Of a stretch of 50,631 nucleotides of DNA, positions 9,217-50,631 are shown one piece after another. The translations under genes were made by a program, and so were the position numbers. The stretch is from NCBI RefSeq assembly GCF_000401215.1, contig NZ_ASRV01000047.1, positions 1 to 50,631 of the forward strand, in the 5' to 3' direction. This stretch comes from Clostridium sartagoforme AAU1. Lineage in GTDB: Bacteria; Bacillota; Clostridia; Clostridiales; Clostridiaceae. Within the stretch, counting starts at the first letter, position 1; each line of letters starts with the position of its first letter. Below the pieces are notes generated by a model, which was given only the letters and a program-made list of their open reading frames with translations, made no database searches and had not been told where the DNA came from.

Positions 9217-10537
9217 CGCATATCTCTCCTATTAAATCATACTCTAATGCTTCCTTAATTTTGACTTTCACAATATCGCCTTTTTTAAGACTTCTAACTT
9301 CATCAATTAATATACTTCCGTCAATTTCAGGTGCCATTTCTGAACTTCTCCCAATGAAATATTTCCCTTTTCTTCCTTCTATAATAGTATCATAAATCTT
9401 TGAAATTTTCAATTTGTTTAGTTCCTCAACAACATTTTTTTGAATTATCATAATCTTTTTTTGTCTTTGCTCTTTTGTATCTTCGTCTACCTGATTTTCC
9501 ATATTAGCAGCTGGAGTTCCTTCTTCTTTTGAATATTTAAAAACTCCTACATTATCAAGTTTATAATCTTCTAAAAAATTGCACAGCTCATTAAAATCTG
9601 CATCTGTTTCTCCTGGAAATCCAACTATAAGAGAAGTTCTTAGAGTAATTCCTGGTATTCTTTTTCTTAATTTATCTATTATTCCTATTATAGCTTCCTT
9701 ATTAGTTCTTCTCGCCATACCTCTTAGTATATTACTACTTATATGTTGTATTGGTAAATCTAAATATTTAACTACCTTAGGATTAATTGCTATTTCTTCA
9801 ATTAGTTCTTCTGTTATTTCTTCTGGATAACAATATAATAATCTTATCCATTCTACTCCATTTATATTTGAAATTTCTTTAATTAATTCATGAAGTTTAT
9901 TTTCATTGAATATATCCATTCCGTAATATGTTAAGTCTTGAGCTATTAGAATAATTTCTTTTACTCCATTTTTAGTTAGATAATTAATTTCTTCTAGTAT
10001 AGATTCTTTACTTCTACTTCTAAATTTTCCCCTTATTTTTGGAATTATACAATAAGTACAATAATTATCACAACCTTCTGCAATTCTTACATATGCAGTG
10101 TGCTTATCTGTAGTTAAAAGTCTTATTCCTTCGTTTATATTATCATCGCTATAATTCGTTGCAAGTAGCTTTCTTTCTCCTTTTATAAAATCTAATATAA
10201 GCTTATGCAGTTTCATATAGTCATTAACACCCATAAGAATATCAATTTCTGGCATAAGTTCTAAAAGTTCTTCTCCATATCTTTGAGCTAAACATCCTGT
10301 TGCTATAAGCATTTTACATTTATATTTATTTTTATATTCAGCCATCTCTAATATTGTATCTATTGATTCTTGTTTTGCACTTTCAATAAATCCACATGTA
10401 TTGACTATTATTATTTCTGCCTCTCTAGGATCATTTGTTATTTCATAAAATTTATTTATAGTTCCAAGAATAAGTTCTGAGTCTACCCTATTCTTATCAC
10501 ATCCTAAACTTACCATACCAACTTTATATTTTTCCAA
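9200..10537 (-). CDS. rimO: Ribosomal protein S12 methylthiotransferase RimO
   Basis: A 445-aa radical-SAM methylthiotransferase that modifies an aspartate of ribosomal protein S12. The N-terminal UPF0004 domain has the first cluster-binding Cys residues ('[10 protein letters not shown]', '[15 protein letters not shown]', 'GCLAQRY'). The radical-SAM motif is 'CDNYCTYC' near residue 155. A C-terminal TRAM domain follows. The '[12 protein letters not shown]' start separates RimO from the tRNA enzyme MiaB. It uses a TTG start preceded by GGAGG. A promoter lies at 10588-10616. Confidence 0.94.
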
Positions 10538-10587
10538 AGCTACTTCCTCCTACGTTTCCTAAATTCTTGATTTTTAGCCTAAATATT

Positions 10588-10616
10588 ATTTTAATGTAGA
10601 AAAATAATATTTACAA
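10588..10616 (-). promoter_or_regulatory. Probable promoter of rimO-pgsA
   Basis: Minus strand TTGTAA (10616-10611), 17 nt, TAAAAT (10593-10588), between the ftsK stop and the rimO start. Confidence 0.55.
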
Positions 10617-10622
10617 GTTTTT

Positions 10623-13043
10623 TTAGTCATCCATATTTAATTCTTCTTTAGAAAGTAGAACTTGCCTTGGTCTGCTCCCATCTTTTTCGGATATAATACC
10701 TCTCTCTTCAAGTTCATCCATTATTCTTGATGCTCTATTAAATCCTATCCTAAGTTTTCTTTGTAAAAAAGATGTTGATGCTTGATTATATTCTATAACA
10801 ATTTTTATTGCTTCATCTAAAAGCTCATCATTTTCTTCTATATCATCTGATTTTCCACTTTCCTTGCTTCCGTTTTCTATATGTTCAAGTATTGATTCTT
10901 CATAATCAACCCCAGCTTCTTCCTCTTTTATAAAACTTACTACTTTTTCTACTTCTTCTTCTGAAATAAACGCTCCTTGAACTCTAATAGGTTTGTTTTC
11001 ACCTATTGGACAATATAGCATATCTCCTCTTCCTAGAAGTTTTTCTGCTCCAGTTGAATCTAGTATAGTTCTTGAGTCTATCCCTGATGAAACAGCAAAT
11101 GAAATTCTAGATGGTATATTAGCCTTAATAACACCAGTAATTACGTCAACAGATGGCCTTTGAGTTGCTATTATCAAATGCATCCCTGCTGCTCTAGCCA
11201 TTTGTGCTAGTCTACAGATATAATCTTCTACATCATTAGGGCACGCCATCATCAAGTCAGCAAGTTCATCTACTATCATAACTATATAAGGTAATTTTTC
11301 TTCAATTATACCTTTATCATAAAGAGAATTATAACTTTCAATATTCCTTACAGAGGAATCTGCAAATAACTTATATCTTTTATTCATTTCATTAACTGCC
11401 CAATTTAATGCTGCTGCAGCTTTTTTAGGATCTGTAACTACAGGAATTAAAAGATGAGGTATCCCATTATAAACACTAAGTTCTACAACCTTAGGATCAA
11501 CCATTAGTAGTTTAACTTCATTCGGACTGTATTTATATAATAAACTAACTATAAGAGTATTAATGCATACAGATTTACCTGAACCTGTTGCCCCTGCAAT
11601 AAGCATATGAGGCATAGTTGCTAAGTCGCCAACTACACATTTACCCGCTATATCTTTTCCTAAAGCAAAAGCTAGTTTTTTATCTGAAGTTTCAAACTCC
11701 TTGGAATCTAAAACTTCTCTTAAAAATACTGATGTTTGCTTATTATTTGGTACTTCTATCCCTATAGCTGCCTTTCCAGGAATAGGAGCTTCCATTCTTA
11801 CACCACTAGCTGCAAGTCCTAATGCTATGTCATCTTGAAGGTTCACTATTTTAGAAACCTTAACTCCTGGACTCGGTTGAATTTCAAATCTTGTTACTGA
11901 TGGCCCTTTAGTCACTTGTACAACCTTTGCATCTACTCCAAAGTCATTTAGAATTCCTTCAAGCTTTCCAGCATTTTCTATAAGCTCTTTTTTATCTTCG
12001 CTTCTAAGCTTCATTTTGCTATTTATATTTAAAAGATCTACTGATGGATGTATATAAATTTTCTCTTCTTTTTTTTCATCTGTTAAACTTTCTTCTATCT
12101 CCTTACTTACTACATCCTTAACTGAGCTATCTAACTTCTCTTTTTTCTTAGGCTTTTCATCTTCTTTTACATTTTTATTAGCTTCTTTATTTGCCCTACT
12201 TTCATGATTTTCTTCATCAAAAACTTCGATATTAAATGGATTATTATTTTTATCTACTTTAAAATCTTCTTGATTACTTTCGATCGTACTTTCTTCTAAA
12301 GAAGAATTTTTCATAAAATCTAAAATTTTTATTTTATTATTTATTCCATTTATAAATTCTTCTCTTTCCTTTTCTTTTTCCTTAGGTATAACTTCTATTA
12401 AAGGTGCATTTTCTTTTTCTGCTGCTGATTCTATAGCCGCTTCCTTTTTTAATGCTTTATCTTTTTTGGCATTTTTACTTTTTTCTTTAAAATACATGAT
12501 TATATCGTAGAAAGTTATATCAAATAGTAATACTGTTCCTATTACCCATATCGAAATGTATAATATATATGATCCTATATAACCAATAAGTTTACTTAGT
12601 GGATAAGCAAAGATATGCCCTATAAGCCCTCCATGCACCCCATTTATATTAACAACTTCTAACCAACTTTCATAAAATCCGCCTTTATTTTGTAATATAT
12701 TAATACTACCAGTGGCGCATCCTAGTGTTATTGCTAATATAATAAGAGTAATTGCAAAAACTCTTCTTGTTACTTTTATACTTCCCTTTGATACAATTGT
12801 ATAATACCCAAAATAAATTAAATATAACGGAAGAACAAAAGTGCTAACCCCTAATAATTTATATATTACTTTTCTTGATAAAACAGATAATGCACCTGCC
12901 CAAGTTGTATAAATCGCAATAGATAATAGCATACCTACTACTATATAAATTATTCCCTTAATATCTCCACTTTCTTTTAAATCATTGTTTTTTTTATTTG
13001 TGTCCTTTTTTTTGCTAGTATTTTTACTCTTAACTTTAGACAA
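10623..13043 (-). CDS. ftsK: DNA translocase FtsK/SpoIIIE
   Basis: An 806-aa septal DNA pump that clears chromosomal DNA from the division (or sporulation) septum. Four membrane helices (about residues 25-185) are followed by a long, charged Lys/Glu-rich linker (about 190-340). The motor then has Walker A 'GATGSGKS' (about 480-490) and Walker B 'MIVDELADLMM', and the C-terminal gamma winged helix ('STSFLQRKLRIGFNRASRIMDELEERGI') reads KOPS/SRS-type sequences. Only one FtsK-type gene is seen here, so whether it acts as FtsK, SpoIIIE or both is not decidable. It lies downstream of tepA and has a candidate promoter of its own. Confidence 0.94.
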   Translation of the reverse strand: MSKVKSKNTSKKKDTNKKNNDLKESGDIKGIIYIVVGMLLSIAIYTTWAGALSVLSRKVIYKLLGVSTFVLPLYLIYFGYYTIVSKGSIKVTRRVFAITLIILAITLGCATGSINILQNKGGFYESWLEVVNINGVHGGLIGHIFAYPLSKLIGYIGSYILYISIWVIGTVLLFDITFYDIIMYFKEKSKNAKKDKALKKEAAIESAAEKENAPLIEVIPKEKEKEREEFINGINNKIKILDFMKNSSLEESTIESNQEDFKVDKNNNPFNIEVFDEENHESRANKEANKNVKEDEKPKKKEKLDSSVKDVVSKEIEESLTDEKKEEKIYIHPSVDLLNINSKMKLRSEDKKELIENAGKLEGILNDFGVDAKVVQVTKGPSVTRFEIQPSPGVKVSKIVNLQDDIALGLAASGVRMEAPIPGKAAIGIEVPNNKQTSVFLREVLDSKEFETSDKKLAFALGKDIAGKCVVGDLATMPHMLIAGATGSGKSVCINTLIVSLLYKYSPNEVKLLMVDPKVVELSVYNGIPHLLIPVVTDPKKAAAALNWAVNEMNKRYKLFADSSVRNIESYNSLYDKGIIEEKLPYIVMIVDELADLMMACPNDVEDYICRLAQMARAAGMHLIIATQRPSVDVITGVIKANIPSRISFAVSSGIDSRTILDSTGAEKLLGRGDMLYCPIGENKPIRVQGAFISEEEVEKVVSFIKEEEAGVDYEESILEHIENGSKESGKSDDIEENDELLDEAIKIVIEYNQASTSFLQRKLRIGFNRASRIMDELEERGIISEKDGSRPRQVLLSKEELNMDD

Positions 13044-42334: not shown

Positions 42335-44431
42335 CTATTCCTTATTTTCATTATTTTCTTTATTTATTATAATAACTTTATTACAATCAGAATTTGAACA
42401 CTGAGCATAATTTCCCTTAGTTTTACTATATTTCAAAACCATATAAGAACTACAATCTGGGCATTTATCTTTTAATGGTTCGTTCCAACTTACGAAGTCA
42501 CATTGTGGATAATTAGAACATCCAAAAAATTTTTTCCCCTTTTTACTTTTCTTTGCTAGAATCTTCCCACCACATTTTGGACAAGGAGCTTCAATTTCTT
42601 CCACAATAGGTTTGGCATTTTTACATTCTGGATATCCAGGACATGCTAAGAAATTTCCATATCTCCCACGTTTTATAACCATCATTCGACCACATTTATC
42701 ACAAGGAACATCACTTACCTTATCTTCTATAACAACTTTAGAAACTTCTTTTTCAGCTTTATCTATTGCTACTTTTAATGGTTGGAAAAATTCTGCTACA
42801 ACTTTTCTCCACTCTTCTTCGCCTTCTTCTATGTGATCTAAGTTCTTTTCCATTTCTGCTGTAAAATCTACATCTACTATTTGTTTAAAATATTCACTAA
42901 GCATATTATTAACTATAAATCCAAGCTCAGTTGGAATTAAGTTTTTCTTTTCTCTCTTAACATAATCTCTACTTAATAATGTAGTTATTGTCGGCACATA
43001 AGTACTTGGTCTTCCTATGCCTTTTTCTTCTAATAACTTTACAAACGAAGCTTCACTATATCGTGCTGGTGGTTGAGTAAAATGTTGTTTTCCTTCTATG
43101 TCAACTTTATTTAAATCATCATTTTCTTCTAACTTAGGTAATAAAACATCCTCATTATCTTCTTCAGTTGCATATTCATACAACTTCATAAATCCATCAA
43201 ATTTTATTGTGGATCCGCTTGCTTTGAATTTATAATCACCGTTTCTAATTTCTATACTATTAGTGTTTAATTCACATGAAGCCATTTGGCTCGCCATAAA
43301 TCTATTCCATATTAAAGAATATAATTTAAACTGTTCTGATGTTAAAGAATTTTTTGCAATTTCCGGCGTTATTTCAATTATTGATGGTCTTATTGCTTCA
43401 TGAGCATCTTGAATATTTTTCTTTCCTTTATATATTCTAGGTGACTTTGGTGCATAGTCCTTTCCATAATTTAAATTAATAAATTCTAACGCTTTACCTT
43501 GTGCCTCATCAGAAATTCTTACTGAATCAGTTCTCATATAAGTTATTAACCCAACTGTACCATAACCCTTAACTTCTACTCCTTCATATAATACTTGAGC
43601 TATTGACATAGTTCTTTTAGTCATAAAATTTAGTTTTTTTGATGCTTCTTGTTGAAGTGTACTAGTTGTAAAGGGAGGTAATGGATTTTTCGCCTTAGTA
43701 CCTTTTTTTACTTTAGTAACTATAAATTTGTCTTTTTTTAGTTCTTCTATTATCTTATCGCTTTCTTCTTTAGTATTTATCTCAATTTTCTTGTTTTTAT
43801 ACTGAACTAATTTTATAGGAAACTTTTTTCTATCTTTAGTTGCTACACAGTCAACAGTCCAATATTCCTTAGGCTCAAATTTATTAATTTCCTCTTCTCT
43901 ATCACAAATAAGCTTTAAGGCTGCTGATTGAACTCTTCCAGCACTTAATCCCCATTTTATATTTTTCCACAAGATTGGGCTTATTTCATAACCAACTAAC
44001 CTATCCAATACTCTTCTAGCTTGTTGTGCATCTACTAAGTTGATATTTATTTTTCTAGCCTCTTTTATTGATGATTTTACTGCTTTTTTTGTTATTTCAT
44101 TGAAAACTATTCTACATTTTTCATCTTCTGAAATATTTAATATATTAGCTAAATGCCATGATATTGCTTCTCCCTCACGATCAGGGTCAGTTGCAAGATA
44201 TACTTTATCAACTTTTTTAGCAGCTTTCTTAAGCTTAGTTATAAGATCGCCTTTTCCTCTTATTGTTATATATTTCGGATTAAAATTATCTTCTATATCA
44301 ACGCCTAGCTTACTTTTTGGCAAATCTCTCACATGCCCCATGGATGCTTCTACTATATAATTCTTACCAAGATATTTTCCTATAGTCTTAGCCTTTGCAG
44401 GTGATTCTACTATTACAAGATTTTGTCCCAT
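42335..44431 (-). CDS. topA: DNA topoisomerase I
   Basis: A 698-aa type IA topoisomerase that relaxes negative supercoils. The N-terminal Toprim domain has 'VIVESPAKAKTIGKYLG' and 'ATDPDREGEAISWHL'. Catalytic Tyr is in 'GLITYMRTDSVRIS' (about residue 300). At the C-terminus there are three zinc ribbons ('CDKCGRMMV', 'CPKCGGKIL', 'CPDCSSYMV', each with a second Cys pair). It follows dprA after a hairpin; the order comM-dprA-topA-codY is standard in clostridia. Confidence 0.96.
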   Translation of the reverse strand: MGQNLVIVESPAKAKTIGKYLGKNYIVEASMGHVRDLPKSKLGVDIEDNFNPKYITIRGKGDLITKLKKAAKKVDKVYLATDPDREGEAISWHLANILNISEDEKCRIVFNEITKKAVKSSIKEARKININLVDAQQARRVLDRLVGYEISPILWKNIKWGLSAGRVQSAALKLICDREEEINKFEPKEYWTVDCVATKDRKKFPIKLVQYKNKKIEINTKEESDKIIEELKKDKFIVTKVKKGTKAKNPLPPFTTSTLQQEASKKLNFMTKRTMSIAQVLYEGVEVKGYGTVGLITYMRTDSVRISDEAQGKALEFINLNYGKDYAPKSPRIYKGKKNIQDAHEAIRPSIIEITPEIAKNSLTSEQFKLYSLIWNRFMASQMASCELNTNSIEIRNGDYKFKASGSTIKFDGFMKLYEYATEEDNEDVLLPKLEENDDLNKVDIEGKQHFTQPPARYSEASFVKLLEEKGIGRPSTYVPTITTLLSRDYVKREKKNLIPTELGFIVNNMLSEYFKQIVDVDFTAEMEKNLDHIEEGEEEWRKVVAEFFQPLKVAIDKAEKEVSKVVIEDKVSDVPCDKCGRMMVIKRGRYGNFLACPGYPECKNAKPIVEEIEAPCPKCGGKILAKKSKKGKKFFGCSNYPQCDFVSWNEPLKDKCPDCSSYMVLKYSKTKGNYAQCSNSDCNKVIIINKENNENKE

Positions 44432-44435
44432 ACAT

Positions 44436-44461
44436 AAAAACTCCAGTAAATTTTATGGAGT
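44436..44461 (-). terminator. dprA-topA intercistronic hairpin
   Basis: Minus strand ACTCCA...TGGAGT with a 10-nt AT loop followed by T5, ending next to the topA start (44431). A weak terminator or attenuator. Confidence 0.6.
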
Positions 44462-44477
44462 CTACACCCCCTTAAAT

Positions 44478-45515
44478 TCATAATGATTTTGCATAATAAT
44501 TGCCAGGAAGGCAAATTATTTCATTTCTGTTTTGCATTTCAAATAATAACTCAAACAATACCTTTCTGTCAACATTTACCGATTCTATTATATCATCCAA
44601 ATGCTTCGGTTCATTATTTATAACATTTAACAAGCAACTTTTCAAACCATTTTTTACCGTTTTTTCATTGTTTTCTTTTTTTATATTAAAAAAATCATAT
44701 AAATCCTGTAGTTCAGTAAATGGTCTTGCTCCATCTCTTATTAATTTATTACACCCTTCACTATTACCATTTATAATAGGTCCCGGAACAGCCATTATAT
44801 CTTTTCCCATTTCTAATGCATAATCAACTGTTATTAATGATCCACTTTTTTTAGTTGCTTCTACTATTATTACTTTTTCACTTATTCCACTTATTATTCT
44901 ATTTCTTCTTGGAAAATTATACGGCATAGGTGGTGTATTAGGTAAAAATTCTGAAAGTAATAATCCTTCCCTTATAACCTTTTCATAAAGATATCTATTA
45001 CTTTTAGGATATATAACATCTATTCCACAACCTAATATGCCTATTGTTTTACCTCTAAATTCTAATGAACTTCTTTGTGCAGCTGAATCTATTCCCGATG
45101 CTAATCCACTTACAACCGTTACGTTATTTTCACTTAATTCTCTTCCTATAATCTTAGCTACTTCCATACCGTATTGAGTACATTTTCTAGCACCTACTAC
45201 AGCTCCCAATTTTCCTTTTAATAAATCTATATTTCCTTTATAAAACAATACATATGGAGGATCTATGCTATTTTTTAAACTTTCTGGATAGTCTTTTGAC
45301 TTAATTGTAATATATCCTATTCCATTATTATTCATGTAATTAATAAAATCTTTAATCATATCCTCTGAAATTACTTTATCTTTTATCTTTTGTAATTCTT
45401 TAATATTGTTTTTATATTTCCTAATGTTACTCTCATTTTCATATTCTTGCAATAGTGTATTTTTCTTTTCATTGGATATATTGGTTAAAATAAACCATAT
45501 TTCATCATTTTTCAT
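44478..45515 (-). CDS. dprA: DNA-processing protein DprA
   Basis: A 345-aa protein that loads RecA on incoming single strands in natural transformation. A SAM-like N-terminal region leads to the Rossmann-like DprA fold ('GAVVGARKCTQYGMEVA', 'VVSGLASGIDSAAQR', 'GILGCGIDVIYP') and a C-terminal winged helix (about 285-345). Start at 45515 after GGGTGG, 16 nt past the comM stop. It is cut off from upstream comM transcription by the prophage. Confidence 0.93.
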   Translation of the reverse strand: MKNDEIWFILTNISNEKKNTLLQEYENESNIRKYKNNIKELQKIKDKVISEDMIKDFINYMNNNGIGYITIKSKDYPESLKNSIDPPYVLFYKGNIDLLKGKLGAVVGARKCTQYGMEVAKIIGRELSENNVTVVSGLASGIDSAAQRSSLEFRGKTIGILGCGIDVIYPKSNRYLYEKVIREGLLLSEFLPNTPPMPYNFPRRNRIISGISEKVIIVEATKKSGSLITVDYALEMGKDIMAVPGPIINGNSEGCNKLIRDGARPFTELQDLYDFFNIKKENNEKTVKNGLKSCLLNVINNEPKHLDDIIESVNVDRKVLFELLFEMQNRNEIICLPGNYYAKSL

Positions 45516-45531
45516 GGTAACCACCCTCATA

Positions 45532-46434
45532 CTAAACTATTTCTCCATCCACATTTTTTCTATATCCTAAAGCTTCAAAAATATGATAATCTTGAATTTT
45601 TTCTGACCCTTCTAAATCAGCTATAGTTCGTGAAACTTTTATAATTTTATCATATCCTCTCATAGTTAAATTTAGTTTTTCATAGTGTATTTTTAGTACT
45701 TTTTTTGATTCTTCTGATAAATTAAATAAATTTTCTATATCCCTGCCTTTTACCTCCGAATTATAATTATACTCACTTTTTTTATACCTATCTCTTTGTA
45801 TTTCTCTTGCTTTTAGCACTCTTTCCTTCATTTTTTCCGAACTTAAACTATCTTTTCTTTTAGAAATATCTTCATATTTTAAACGTGGAACATAATTCAA
45901 CAAATCTATTCGATCTAATAAAGCTCTAGATAATCTATTTAAGTATCTTTTTCTATCACTTTCTGAACAAGTACACCTATTTTCATCAATTCCATTTAAA
46001 AATAAACCACATGGGCATGGATTAAAGGCCCCTACAAGCAAAAAATTAGATGGAAGCTTATATGTCCCATTAATTCTATTTATATTTATCACCTTTTCTT
46101 CTAAAGGCTCTCTTAAAACTTCTAAAACATCCCTTTTAAATTCTAATATTTCATCTAAAAATAATATTCCATTATGGGCTAAAGTTATTTCTCCTGCTTT
46201 TATTTCTTTTCCTCCTCCAACTAAAGCTATTTTGGTTATTGTATGATGCGGATTTCTAAAAGGTCTAATAACTCCCTCATCCCCTGAAAATATACCAGAT
46301 GCACTATATATTTTAGCAATTTCTATTTCTTCTTTATATGTTAGAGGAGGTAGGATAGATGGCAGTGCTTTAGCAAGCATTGTTTTCCCTGACCCTGGCG
46401 ACCCATAAAGTAATATATTTAAATACAAAATCAA
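45532..46434 (-). pseudogene. comM: ComM/YifB Mg-chelatase-like ATPase, 5' part replaced by prophage
   Basis: The 300-aa C-terminal part of ComM, a AAA+ branch-migration helicase used in transformation. Walker A 'GSPGSGKT' is at residues 11-18. Walker B 'GILFLDEILEF', Cys cluster region 'FNPCPCGLF...CTCSES', and the Mg_chelatase C-terminal domain follow. A full ComM is ~500 aa, so the ~200-residue N-terminal Lon-like domain is missing. Family identity starts at 'NILLYGSPG'; the preceding 'GGH' is gone. A TAA stop lies in frame at 46440-46449, and the sequence beyond is prophage. The other half must be at the far end of the element, outside the window. Confidence 0.9.
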
Positions 46435-46470
46435 GGATTTTATTTAATTGATATGATAATTATAGACATG
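46410..46470. other. Prophage attachment junction within comM
   Basis: At about 46415-46435, minus strand, recognisable comM codons (AATATATTACTTTATGGG for NILLYG) give way to sequence unlike ComM and full of stops. A serine recombinase gene begins 12-45 nt later. The exact core (usually a 2-nt crossover in a short identity) cannot be fixed without the other junction. Confidence 0.65.
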
Positions 46471-46481
46471 TGAATTATGTT

Positions 46482-48081
46482 TTATTCACTTATTAGAATA
46501 ATGATTTCCTCTATTAACACTTCTAATGAAGTAATTATGTTTATTTCATCATTATTTATACGAATTGATTCTATTATATTGATAAACTTCTCTTTATTTA
46601 TATTTTTACTTTTTAAAATTTGGTTATTTATTTCTTTTCGCAAATTAATTAATTCATCTCTTATAAGTACGAACTCTGAAATTCCATTATTGAGATTATC
46701 TAACTCTTTATCTAACTCATCTTTCTTCGTTAGAATTTCTTGTTGCTTTTCCTCAAATATTTCTTTAGGTAAACTGCTATCCATATATAAATTTAGTAAT
46801 TTTTTATTATCCTCATTTAATATATTTATCCTTTTAAATATATTATCCTTTTTATTTCAATATCTTCTTCTAAAATAGCACCATTATACTCTTCAATTTT
46901 GTTATCAATCTGATTTTTATATCTTTAAATTTATTACATATATATATGTAGAAATTTTTTATATACTCATCTAAAATCATTTCTAATTTGCTTAAAGATA
47001 TATTTTTGTTGTCACATTTATTTACTCCAAAACGCTTTTTATTACAACAGTTAAAAAACCTTCTTCCATCATCCATGTTTGATATATAATTCGAACCACA
47101 TTTATCACAAACTATTTTATTTGAATAAACAGATTTACCTGAATATTTTCCTATACCTTTATTTTCCCCTAACCTTCTTGCTCTTAACTCTTTCGCTTCA
47201 TTGAATATTTCTTTTGAAATAATTGCTGGAATTCTATCACTATCCTTATAAATTATATCCTCTTCTTTATTTCTACTTATCTTATTGCTTTCAAATAATT
47301 TAGGGGCTGAGTATGTTAACCGATTTGATATTCCACAATACTTAACATTTCTCAGTATATTATTAATTGTACTAACTGCAAAAGCTTTTTCATTTCTAGT
47401 TAATATTCCTTTCTCCGTTAATATCCTTTGTATAACTCTATTTCCATAACCTTCAATGCATAGGTCAAATATTAATCTTACTACTTTAGCTTCTGCCTCT
47501 ATTATCTCTAATCTGTTCTCACTCTCTATAAATTTATATCCGTATAGATTCCCATTTGTATGAATCTTATCAGTTCTCATAGCACTTCTTTTGTATCCAT
47601 TTGAAACTTTTATTGATTTATCTCTACTTTCTTGTTCATCCATAGTAAAGAATATATTCAATAAAGTTTCATCCTCTGGCTTTTCTGTAGATTTAGATAA
47701 ATCCTTAAATACAACATAAACACCTTTTTCTTTTAATGCTCTTATTATGGAAACAACTTCAACATTTCTTGCAAATCTACTTGTATTGGTTACATAAATA
47801 TAACTAAACTTACTTTCTTTATTCCTACTAGCTGTATATATACTTTTTCCATTAACTATGTCTATATCTAATCCAGCCATAACTAACATTCTATTAAACT
47901 CTTTTCTATTAGAAAACTTTGTGCCAGACAATCCTTTATCTGCAAAAATATCTATTAATTCATATCCATTTTCCTCATTTAATTCAGCTTCAAAATAAGA
48001 CTTCTGATTTTGAAAACTGTTTTCTTGGTCTAGTTTATCTGTACTAACTCTACAATAAGCCACTACTTTCTTTAAATCCAT
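46482..48081 (-). pseudogene. Large serine recombinase (phage integrase), two frameshifts
   Basis: Site-specific recombinase for the comM insertion. The start is ATG at 48081 after GGAGG. The catalytic domain has 'VVAYCRVSTDKLDQENS' with the nucleophile Ser near residue 11-12 and the Arg cluster 'VSIIRALKEKG...TSRFARN'. A recombinase domain and a zinc ribbon ('CDKCGSNYISN...CCNKK...CDNKN') follow, then a coiled coil. The frame breaks twice. An A5 run at 46914-46918 should be A6 (restoring 'KNQIDNKIEEYNGAILEED'), and an A5 run at 46849-46853 should be A6 (restoring 'IKKDNIFKRINILNEDNKK'). The repaired protein is ~533 aa, family length, ending at 46482. Confidence 0.85.
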
Positions 48082-48133
48082 ATAATCATCCTCCAAACAA
48101 TTAATTATATTATATATTATGTATTCTAATTTT

Positions 48134-48205
48134 CTAATATTTTTTACTGGTTTTTAATACCTTTCTTAAACTCTCAATTATTTTCTTGTCCTTTTTATAA
48201 TCCAT
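48134..48205 (-). CDS. Tiny Lys-rich ORF in prophage
   Basis: A 23-codon frame (MDYKKDKKIIESLRKVLK...) beginning shortly after a G7 tract that could serve as a ribosome binding site, placed between holin-like gene and recombinase. Phage tail modules often carry tiny Lys-rich XkdX-like genes near here, but I cannot match it to a family. May be chance. Confidence 0.3.
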   Translation of the reverse strand: MDYKKDKKIIESLRKVLKTSKKY

Positions 48206-48243
48206 TTACATCCCCCCCAAAAAATTCCTTCCTTTATATATGC

Positions 48244-48272
48244 AAAAAAGGCTAGACTTTTTACATCTAACC
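48244..48272 (-). terminator. Terminator of the prophage tail/holin unit
   Basis: Minus strand GGTTAGA...TCTAGCC (9-nt loop) followed by T6, 19 nt past the holin-like gene stop. Confidence 0.85.
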
Positions 48273-48290
48273 TTATTTCCTTATTATGTA

Positions 48291-48521
48291 TTATTTTAAT
48301 TCTTCAACTAACTTGTCTATTTTAACTCCAACTCCATCAATTTTATTATTAATAGAAGCTACAAGCTCAGAATTAGTCTTTACTAGTTCAGCGTTCGCAT
48401 TTGTAAGTTGATTACAAGTTGCTCTTATTGTGCTCCACATTTGCCACAAAATATATGCTAATGCACAAGCTACTGTTATTGGAAACCCAACATTACTTAT
48501 AAATGTATCCAATTGAATCAA
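48291..48521 (-). CDS. Small phage membrane protein, putative holin
   Basis: A 76-aa protein with one hydrophobic segment (about residues 10-30, 'GFPITVACALAYILWQMW') followed by a polar coiled-coil-like tail ('NKIDGVGVKIDKLVEELK'). This is the layout of BhlA/UviB-type holins and similar phage membrane proteins. TTG start with GGAAGGTGA upstream. It follows the tail gene and ends at a terminator. Holin is inferred from size, topology and position. No endolysin follows, which weakens the claim. Confidence 0.6.
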   Translation of the reverse strand: MIQLDTFISNVGFPITVACALAYILWQMWSTIRATCNQLTNANAELVKTNSELVASINNKIDGVGVKIDKLVEELK

Positions 48522-48542
48522 TACACTTCACCTTCCTTTACT

Positions 48543-50631
48543 TTAAATTTCTTGGCTAAATTTTTCTAGTCTTAGATTCTCATATCCTTTTCTCTTTGCC
48601 TTAATTGTGTATTTAAAAGTGAAATCTTCCCTATCACTCTCTACTATGAAGTAATCTTTAGTTTGGTCTTTTATCTTAAAATCTCCCCAACCTATTTTAT
48701 GAATGTCTATAATATAATTGTTCTCTAAGTTTGCACACTCTTTAAATATGGTATCTATTAGTATAACTCTTTCAAATATTCCTGTTTCTGTTTTAGATAC
48801 AGTCATTAATTCAGAACAAGTATCTGTCAAATAAGATTCTGTATCTTCTGTTGAGTAAAATAATCTATTGCCATATTTTTGTGTAGGTTGAATACAGTTT
48901 TTATTTCCAACAACAGAAAAATCACCAATTACAGTAGTTTTACCACTAATGTACGTACCACCATTTAAGGCATAGAATCCGAGTTGACCGTTTGGACTTG
49001 ATAACTCTCCACCTAATATTTTAGAACCTTCTAGATTTATATTTTGCCAAAACTTAACCCCTTCAAAAAAAGTTATTGGTTTAGGATTTCCGGTAACTCC
49101 ATAATAGTCAAAATCAACGTAGGATCTATTAATGTTTGTACTTTCACTCTCGTCATAGCCTATGGAAAAGTATGAGTTAATGCCATTAGCAATTCCCAAT
49201 CCTGTTTTATTAGCATCACCATTCCTTCTTGAACTATAAATAAATCCAACTGGGGATGTCCTTGTTGTTCCTTCCCAATCATAAAAATTTATAGTACGTC
49301 CAACAAACTCTAGTGCTTTATTTCCATTTGCTTTTGTATATATATTCCCATTAGTTATATCTATTAAAGCATTATTACCTTCTAATTTACCTTTTCTAAA
49401 TGTTACTTCTCCAGCATTAAGATTTATTATCAGATTATCATTAAATCCTCTTATAATTCCTGTTTTAATTAATGCAGCATTAATTTCCCCACTATTTAAA
49501 ATACTACAATTAAAATTCCCGTTGATATCCATAATTAAAGTAACATCATTAGCTTCACCAGTTTCTATATTAATACCATTCCTAAAAAACATTATTCCAT
49601 GCTTGTTGGCTACTATTCCTTTTCTAGCTTGTTTTATGTCAGTTTCATCTGTCCAAGCAGTGAAATTTTTAGCATAATGACTATAACCACCAAATCCATC
49701 CATTACAGTATTTATAGACTCTTTTTTGGCAGTTAGTATAACATCTTCTACTGTAGGTAGTTTTTCAATTTCTTTCTTAATGCTATTTAATGTAGGCGGT
49801 TTTAAATCTTTGATATCATTATTACTTAAAGTAATATTAGTTACTTCATCAGCTAATACATCAACTTCCATCTCAATAATTCTAGTTTCTATATCTATAT
49901 TGAATTTAGGAATATATGTGGCAATCTTATCACCTATGCTTAACCATACTTTAGTATCATCCTTATGTTCTTCTACTGTAGATAATTCTAAAAACTTAGT
50001 ATCAAAAGTCATTTTAGGTTCATCAATTTTATTTACTGTAAATTCTAATCTAGCGAGTCTTTCTAATTCTGCCTTTGCTTCTTCCTCGGTATTGTAATAT
50101 GTATAACCTTCATCATTTTCTTTGCCTTCTTCTTTTACTCTTACTGGATATACTTTCTCAACTGTTTCCCCTAACATATTAATATTAGTTGATAACTTTC
50201 CACTATAGATAATATTGTCGGCATAAAGCTTATCATAACCTTTAGCTAATACTCCTTTAGTAATTGTTAAATCTTCTTCAGCTTCATTAGAAATTAAGTT
50301 TTTCCCATATTCAACTTTATATTTAGGTATTTTACTTCCTACATAGTCAACCAATTCAACCTTAAATTCTTCTTTTTTAATCTCACACCCATAAAGTTCT
50401 TTCAAATCAGAAACTATATTATAAAAGCTATCATGCCAAGCATTTATAGATTTTAAATCACTTAAATTAGAGCTTACTTCTAAATCCCTAGCAAACTGTT
50501 TACCTTGTTTATACTCTTCACTATTGCTTTTTAACCAATCCAATATAGCTAATCCATTTAAATTTCTTGGTTTACTATCCACTATAAACATGCTTCTTAA
50601 AGTTTCAGTTCCCCAATGCCTACAAGTTAGC
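48543..50631 (-). CDS. Prophage tail protein (tail-associated/minor structural), 5' end outside window
   Basis: At least 682 aa from the first Met, with the frame open to the window edge upstream of it ('LTCRHWGTETLRSM'), so the true start lies beyond 50631. The N-terminal part resembles the endopeptidase-type tail proteins of siphophages of clostridia. A middle region ('EKVYPVRVKEEGKENDEGYTYYN...') is followed by beta-rich repeats typical of fibre or base-plate proteins ('GEINAALIKTGIIRG', 'GNALIDI'-like strands). It most likely builds the tail tip or receptor-binding region. Enzymatic activity is not evident from motifs. Confidence 0.7.
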   Translation of the reverse strand, partial: LTCRHWGTETLRSMFIVDSKPRNLNGLAILDWLKSNSEEYKQGKQFARDLEVSSNLSDLKSINAWHDSFYNIVSDLKELYGCEIKKEEFKVELVDYVGSKIPKYKVEYGKNLISNEAEEDLTITKGVLAKGYDKLYADNIIYSGKLSTNINMLGETVEKVYPVRVKEEGKENDEGYTYYNTEEEAKAELERLARLEFTVNKIDEPKMTFDTKFLELSTVEEHKDDTKVWLSIGDKIATYIPKFNIDIETRIIEMEVDVLADEVTNITLSNNDIKDLKPPTLNSIKKEIEKLPTVEDVILTAKKESINTVMDGFGGYSHYAKNFTAWTDETDIKQARKGIVANKHGIMFFRNGINIETGEANDVTLIMDINGNFNCSILNSGEINAALIKTGIIRGFNDNLIINLNAGEVTFRKGKLEGNNALIDITNGNIYTKANGNKALEFVGRTINFYDWEGTTRTSPVGFIYSSRRNGDANKTGLGIANGINSYFSIGYDESESTNINRSYVDFDYYGVTGNPKPITFFEGVKFWQNINLEGSKILGGELSSPNGQLGFYALNGGTYISGKTTVIGDFSVVGNKNCIQPTQKYGNRLFYSTEDTESYLTDTCSELMTVSKTETGIFERVILIDTIFKECANLENNYIIDIHKIGWGDFKIKDQTKDYFIVESDREDFTFKYTIKAKRKGYENLRLEKFSQEI

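What the first reader, a model, noticed from the sequence alone, without database searches (positions are those of the whole stretch)
45532..48096. Prophage with serine recombinase inserted in comM, separating dprA-topA from upstream
The comM reading frame stops being ComM-like just before 'NILLYGSPG' and the recombinase gene lies immediately beyond. This resembles known cases in which a prophage in a competence gene (such as comK in Listeria) can excise and restore it, and other islands that use comM. If this prophage excises precisely it would repair ComM and reconnect dprA (and topA) to the normal upstream region, so lysogeny may silence a transformation gene reversibly.
Basis: partly seen in the sequence, partly recalled or inferred. 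Interest (0 to 1): 0.7.

Follow-up and report, generated by a model that had tools for sequence, protein, structure and literature searches.

The report
Prophage inserted inside the comM gene
A virus integrated in this bacterium's chromosome has cut the DNA-recombination gene comM in two at a spot that related elements also use; this is a common kind of insertion, and its own insertion enzyme gene looks broken, so easy reversal is doubtful.

Summary
The window carries comM residues ~213-507, then a large serine recombinase (LSR) gene and phage tail and holin-like genes. The missing comM 5' half lies on another contig of the same draft genome beside more phage-type genes; no second comM was found. 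The junctions share AATATATT; the phage-side halves form a 50-bp inverted repeat centred on one base step, the inferred crossover, used by four other elements in three genera. Among 206 family genomes, 16 comM genes are cut by LSR elements at three sites (5 A, 2 B, 9 C), each site with its own LSR group. The kind is known: Durrant et al. 2022 report Mg-chelatase genes as targets of 12.4% of site-specific LSRs (passage).

Not supported: ready reversibility (this LSR's C-terminal region is spread over three reading frames; no empty-site or circle junction in the assembly) and a transformation switch (RadA is intact; ComM is untested in this family). Unexpected: near-identical element ends sit at site A in opposite orientations in two genera. 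Ordinary in kind, with an interesting side result.

The parts
45532..46419 (-). comM 3' part (residues ~213-507 of a 507-aa relative), AAA+ domain with Walker A
   Evidence: tblastn 84.7% identity to intact G043 ComM; TIGR00368 213-499
46388..46437 (-). attR (phage-chromosome junction); inferred crossover step 46412-46413, shared 8-bp stretch 46412-46419
46482..46784 (-). probable C-terminal piece of the serine recombinase in another frame
   Evidence: weak blastp to recombinase C-termini (best E 2e-7 to G005, 0.003 to G139); frames
46870..48096 (-). large serine recombinase: catalytic, recombinase and zinc-ribbon domains
   Evidence: PF00239, PF07508, PF13408 above cut-off
48291..48521 (-). 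holin-like small protein
   Evidence: phrog_4898 holin E 1.5e-6; PF12841 YvrJ below its cut-off
48543..50591 (-). phage tail / minor structural protein
   Evidence: phrog_1067 E 1e-33 and phrog_5555 E 2e-21; PF06605 slightly below its cut-off
44478..45530 (-). dprA, directly downstream of the comM 3' half
   Evidence: TIGR00732 above cut-off
42335..44431 (-). topA
   Evidence: TIGR01051 above cut-off

Best explanation
A temperate phage integrated by its large serine recombinase into comM. Recombination between a roughly 50-bp inverted-repeat attP and a site in comM at the codon after 'AAGKHN-I', just before the Walker A motif, split the gene: about 216 codons stay at one end (contig C50), the AAA+ part at the other (window). 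ComM is thereby lost or reduced to separate domains, and dprA-topA are detached from the region upstream of comM. This attB is a recurrent target of one recombinase group. Shown: the two halves, the junctions, attP symmetry, recurrence. Inferred: the crossover step, loss of ComM function, and that the two contigs flank one element. In this genome the recombinase is probably defective, so the insertion is probably fixed unless helped in trans.
For: Both halves found and complementary. 8-bp overlap of junctions against an intact relative. attP composite symmetric about the same base step in 5 of 5 site-A elements (20, 19, 18, 18, 18 of 24 positions; 0 of 2000 mononucleotide shuffles as high in each; best of the centres tried in each). 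A serine recombinase frame beside a junction in 16 of 16 element-interrupted comM genes. Site-A recombinases group together (92/87), site B (81/70), site C (100/100) in a 27-row tree of 16 comM-linked and 11 other recombinases that I chose. The site-A element of G139 has portal, terminase, major head and tail genes.
Against: The middle of this prophage was not located, so its completeness and size (about 24.8 kb on the two contigs if all of C50 up to the junction belongs to it) are unknown; terminase and capsid genes were not sought in this genome. The contigs could in principle flank different insertions. Groups A and B rest on moderate support and include long or partial rows.
Confidence: 0.93

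Rival explanations
1. Active lysogeny: the prophage excises precisely under some condition, restores comM and relinks dprA, as the comK prophage of Listeria does, making lysogeny a reversible switch of transformation.
For: Clean junctions and symmetric attP; a ComEC-family gene; competence genes are enriched LSR targets (Durrant 2022 passage).
Against: Recombinase C-terminal region spread over three frames; no attB-like or attP-like junction in the assembly at up to 2 mismatches; RadA intact; ComM role untested in this family.
Confidence: 0.12
2. Anti-curing strategy: elements gain by inserting in comM because losing ComM lowers their removal by transformation (Croucher 2016 model).
For: Three sites in one gene, each with its own recombinase group; published model and comM cases in Gram-negative species (passages).
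Against: A conserved region is also simply a stable attB; two site-B elements leave a long comM ORF (511 and 482 aa), which does not fit a drive to destroy ComM; transformation in these hosts unproven.
Confidence: 0.3
3. The comM half-genes are an assembly artefact.
For: 322-contig draft; halves on different contigs.
Against: Phage-side sequences at both junctions make an inverted repeat centred as in four other genomes, in three of which (G007, G068, G139) both halves lie on one contig.
Confidence: 0.02

Closest known systems
LSR elements in magnesium chelatase/ATP-dependent protease genes (Durrant et al. 2022, PMC10083194; passages seen)
   Same: Same target gene family by name; diverse serine recombinases converge on it; 12.4% of predicted site-specific LSRs
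   Different: The passages seen give no map of sites within the gene, no orientation and no family-wide frequency as made here
Listeria phage A118 in comK (PMC3556126; passages seen)
   Same: Serine integrase, attP of about 50 bp, crossover at a central dinucleotide, competence-annotated target
   Different: Target comM, not comK; recombinase here frame-broken; no excision evidence
MGE insertions in comM of Aggregatibacter, Acinetobacter, Mannheimia, Francisella, Pseudomonas (PMC4774983, PMC11472951; passages seen)
   Same: comM interrupted by mobile elements
   Different: Other elements (integrases similar to CF65_00446; AbaR/Tn7-like islands) in Gram-negative hosts
Wolbachia WOcauB2-type prophages (PMC5447182; one passage seen)
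   Same: Serine recombinase gene immediately beside a magnesium chelatase-related gene
   Different: Different host and phage; the passage does not say the gene is interrupted

Membership tests
Large serine recombinase (phage integrase) | N-terminal resolvase catalytic domain plus Recombinase and zinc-ribbon domains | tested here: met
   PF00239, PF07508, PF13408 on window 46870-48096
Large serine recombinase (phage integrase) | Intact single ORF including the C-terminal coiled-coil region | tested here: not met
   408-aa ORF ends early; a probable C-terminal piece lies in another frame. Site-A relatives G139, G068, G141 have 554-556 aa frames
Large serine recombinase (phage integrase) | Roughly 50-bp attP with imperfect dyad symmetry about a central dinucleotide | tested here: met
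   20 of 24 positions symmetric at p10.5, 0 of 2000 shuffles as high
Temperate phage (prophage) | Phage structural, lysis and replication genes inside the element | tested here: inconclusive
   Tail protein and holin-like protein in the window; helicase and partition protein on C50. Terminase and capsid not sought in this genome
Active lysogeny / gene-interrupting regulatory prophage (comK type) | Precise excision restoring the host gene | not testable with these tools
   No reads; the assembly holds no attB-like or attP-like junction
Active lysogeny / gene-interrupting regulatory prophage (comK type) | Interrupted gene acts in competence in that host | not testable with these tools
   YifB/ComM family by TIGR00368; no functional data for this family seen
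ComM (YifB family) | ChlI + Mg_chelatase + Mg_chelatase_C domains | tested here: met
   The two halves together cover the three domains, and TIGR00368 3-217 plus 213-499; neither half alone reaches the TIGR00368 cut-off

The most novel reading that the evidence does not exclude
At this comM site the orientation of integration is evolutionarily free: because attP arms are near-symmetric, only the central dinucleotide sets direction, and elements with nearly identical ends have inserted both ways in nature (G068 against G141). In both copies the two junctions differ by one base at the inferred dinucleotide, hinting that the core was changed, mismatched or self-complementary during the flip.
Probability: 0.55. 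Interest if true: 0.45.

Novelty: new member of a known kind. Interest (0 to 1): 0.3.

Why it matters
It adds a mapped case, and a family-wide frequency (16 of 206 genomes), to the known preference of serine integrases for the ComM/Mg-chelatase gene. It also tempers the functional reading: in these bacteria ComM is widespread yet uncharacterised, RadA is present in this genome, and two site-B insertions leave a long comM ORF, so 'phage silences transformation' should not be assumed. The opposite-orientation pair offers natural material for testing how serine integrases set direction.

Tried and rejected
Naming the host or close recombinase relatives: the one genome-contig scan gave only a 24%-identical planctomycete locus; viral-contig scans with the 782-aa ATPase and the recombinase gave no relative; 263 phage records matched the recombinase, all under 60% identity. 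No call names the host; Clostridium is my inference.

Second intact comM: none found. Of the ChlI-domain matches outside C50, the one on C25 is RadA; those on C39 and C152 were not followed. Diverged second ComM-like copies (38-44% identity) do occur in 5 of the 68 genus genomes, G001, G035, G054, G059, G062, not in this one.

Excised form: no attB-like or attP-like junction in the assembly.

A palindromic AATATATT core as orientation-blind crossover in this genome: rejected, since the symmetry centre puts the step at TT.

Site-C orientation differences as proof of free orientation: not accepted, as those elements differ. Of the 9 site-C genomes attP was composed for 8 (not G140); 7 centred best at p7.5 (G161 weakly, 9 of 20), G029 did not; no shuffles were run there.

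The recombinase group is not confined to comM: G059's recombinase matches ours at 41% though its comM is intact; in the tree it falls with other-locus rows.

Papers on phages in comM of Clostridium: the titles listed (20 of 176; 4 of 4; 20 of 379; 20 of 108; 1 of 1; 12 of 76) show none aimed at this; that is not proof of absence, and Durrant 2022 may well include such cases.

Full report
Observation. The window is a whole contig (C47) of a 322-contig, 3.98-Mb draft genome, 97.7% complete. On the minus strand it reads tail protein (48543-50591), holin-like protein (48291-48521), serine recombinase (46870-48096), then the 3' part of comM from 46419, dprA (44478-45530) and topA (42335-44431). The comM frame matches only positions 213-499 of 499 of the YifB/ComM model.

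The missing half. A ChlI-domain search of the same genome found a 232-aa ORF on contig C50 (L001:1237-1935) that matches model positions 3-217. Upstream lie yraN-like and rnhB-like ORFs (named from recall); on the phage side lie about 20.6 kb with a helicase, an actin-like partition protein, a protein of family phrog_8308 and an ATPase of family phrog_5156 with a weak TrwB match. Two same-genus relatives, G043 and G063, have one uninterrupted ComM (507-aa query range) and the same order of comM and its downstream DNA through topA. G043 DNA aligns to the C50 junction up to its base 1548 and to the window from its base 1541: an 8-bp overlap, AATATATT. For a second copy, one search lists only the two halves and one weak match in G000.

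Attachment site. I set p1 at the first base of the His codon of AAGKHN. In each of five site-A genomes I put together the phage-side sequence of both junctions. Each composite is an inverted repeat whose best centre is p10.5, with 20, 19, 18, 18 and 18 of 24 positions paired (own, G007, G139, G068, G141). None of 2000 mononucleotide shuffles reached these values in any of the five; the host-side composites score 10, 7, 13, 14 and 12 of 24. The inferred crossover step is p10-11, window 46412-46413. It reads TT here, AT in G007 and CT in G139 at both junctions; in G068 and G141 the two junctions differ at p10. Own and G007 have CCTTG and CAAGG on the outer arms, G068 and G141 have one of these and a one-base variant of the other, G139 has neither.

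How common. All 206 genomes held for the family were searched with ComM (list cut off); the 58 not listed there as full length, or weak, were looked at (26; 32). My count from the three outputs: 173 long ComM frames (including G166, whose match starts at residue 31 and may be another site-B case, and four matches of only 42-44% identity, G100, G101, G190, G191); 16 interrupted by an element; 2 split by adjoining frames without an insert (G138, which also has a diverged full-length copy, and G175); 4 unresolved at contig ends (G058, G082, G172, G183); 11 with only weak or no matches (G047, G085, G181, G186-188, G192-195, G205). The 16 are: site A, residues about 212-216: own, G007, G068, G139, G141; site B, residue about 35: G005, G056; site C, residues about 345-350: G029, G070, G113, G140, G148, G161, G162, G176, G178. 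All 16 have a serine recombinase frame beside a junction. In a tree of these 16 and 11 other recombinases that I chose from the loci in hand, site A forms one group (92/87), site B another (81/70), A+B together 93/96, site C a distant group (100/100). G005 and G007 are flagged as long branches, and the own and G005 rows are partial, so fine placement is unsure.

Orientation. G068 and G141, of different genera, share element ends at 99.77% over 2573 bp (with the recombinase) and 98.25% over 4161 bp; their middles differ. In G068 the recombinase end adjoins the comM 5' half, in G141 the 3' half, while the chromosomal flanks align in the same order. G141's halves are on two contigs. The A118 study (passages) shows that the central dinucleotide alone sets direction and must match between sites; the one-base differences here may be later substitutions or reflect an altered core. 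Site-C elements also occur both ways (recombinase beside the 5' half in 6 of 9, the 3' half in 3 of 9), but those elements differ.

Mechanism and function. The element most likely entered by ordinary LSR integration. Whether it can leave is doubtful: the recombinase's C-terminal region lies in three different frames, with a 100-aa piece that weakly matches recombinase C-termini. dprA and topA beside it are single ORFs, which speaks mildly against poor sequence, but no reads were available. The assembly holds no attB-like or attP-like junction; minority forms may be lost in assembly. The genome has a ComEC-family gene (the family also matches E. coli) and a full RadA above its curated cut-off. 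An EMBO J. 2024 paper (abstract and one passage seen) assigns transformation in model Firmicutes to RadA and calls ComM absent from Firmicutes; here YifB/ComM is present in most of the family, so its role is open. One base separates the comM stop from dprA, so comM-dprA probably form one unit with a promoter before comM; in this lysogen dprA and topA must use another one (inferred; the consensus scan of 44300-48600 found 22 promoter-like sites against 30.7 expected).

Known context. Durrant et al. 2022 (passages) report that magnesium chelatase/ATP-dependent protease genes are targeted by 12.4% of predicted site-specific LSRs and that competence genes are enriched as targets. Croucher 2016 (passages) and a 2024 PLoS Biology paper (passages) describe other elements in comM of Gram-negative species. 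The finding is a new, well-documented member of a known kind.

Verdict. Anatomy confirmed; reversible control of transformation not shown and, for this copy, unlikely. The two site-B cases (511-aa and 482-aa comM ORFs left after insertion) and the opposite-orientation pair are the parts most worth following.

Noticed in passing
L062 1945-13465; L063 130-2701; L064 1201-5360: Nearly identical element ends at the same comM site in opposite orientation in two genera (G068, G141).
   Followed up: partly
L041 1543-3078; L040 14238-15686: Site-B insertions leave a long comM ORF: in G005 the element side seems to supply a new N-terminus (511 aa; DNA similarity starts only near residue 32), in G056 the ORF starts about 30 residues late (482 aa). 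G005's recombinase is also in two frames.
   Followed up: partly
L062 8254-10041: The 11.5-kb G068 element carries an EcoRV-family restriction enzyme and a D12-class adenine methyltransferase, plus a short tyrosine recombinase at 10257-10874.
   Followed up: partly
L006 6568-9471, 14840-17188, 18304-19170: The C50 part of the prophage has a 967-aa phrog_8308 protein, a phrog_5156 ATPase with weak TrwB similarity and an actin-like partition protein, perhaps a large phage or phage-plasmid.
   Followed up: no
L083, L084: In G175 and G138 comM is split into two frames that touch at residues ~264 and ~250 with no insertion between them.
   Followed up: no
L069 3007-3354: G140 has an extra inverted comM fragment (residues 253-368) near its split comM.
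   Followed up: no
G166:C1:1721162-1722610: ComM match starts at residue 31, as in the site-B case G056; possible further site-B insertion.
   Followed up: no
L050 2-148; L049: G031 has a full comM at one contig edge and a second comM 5' piece (residues 5-53) at the edge of another contig; not resolved.
   Followed up: no
L006 13376-14803: 475-aa protein with an HsdR-type N-terminal domain and weak tyrosine-integrase similarity in the C50 part of the prophage.
   Followed up: no
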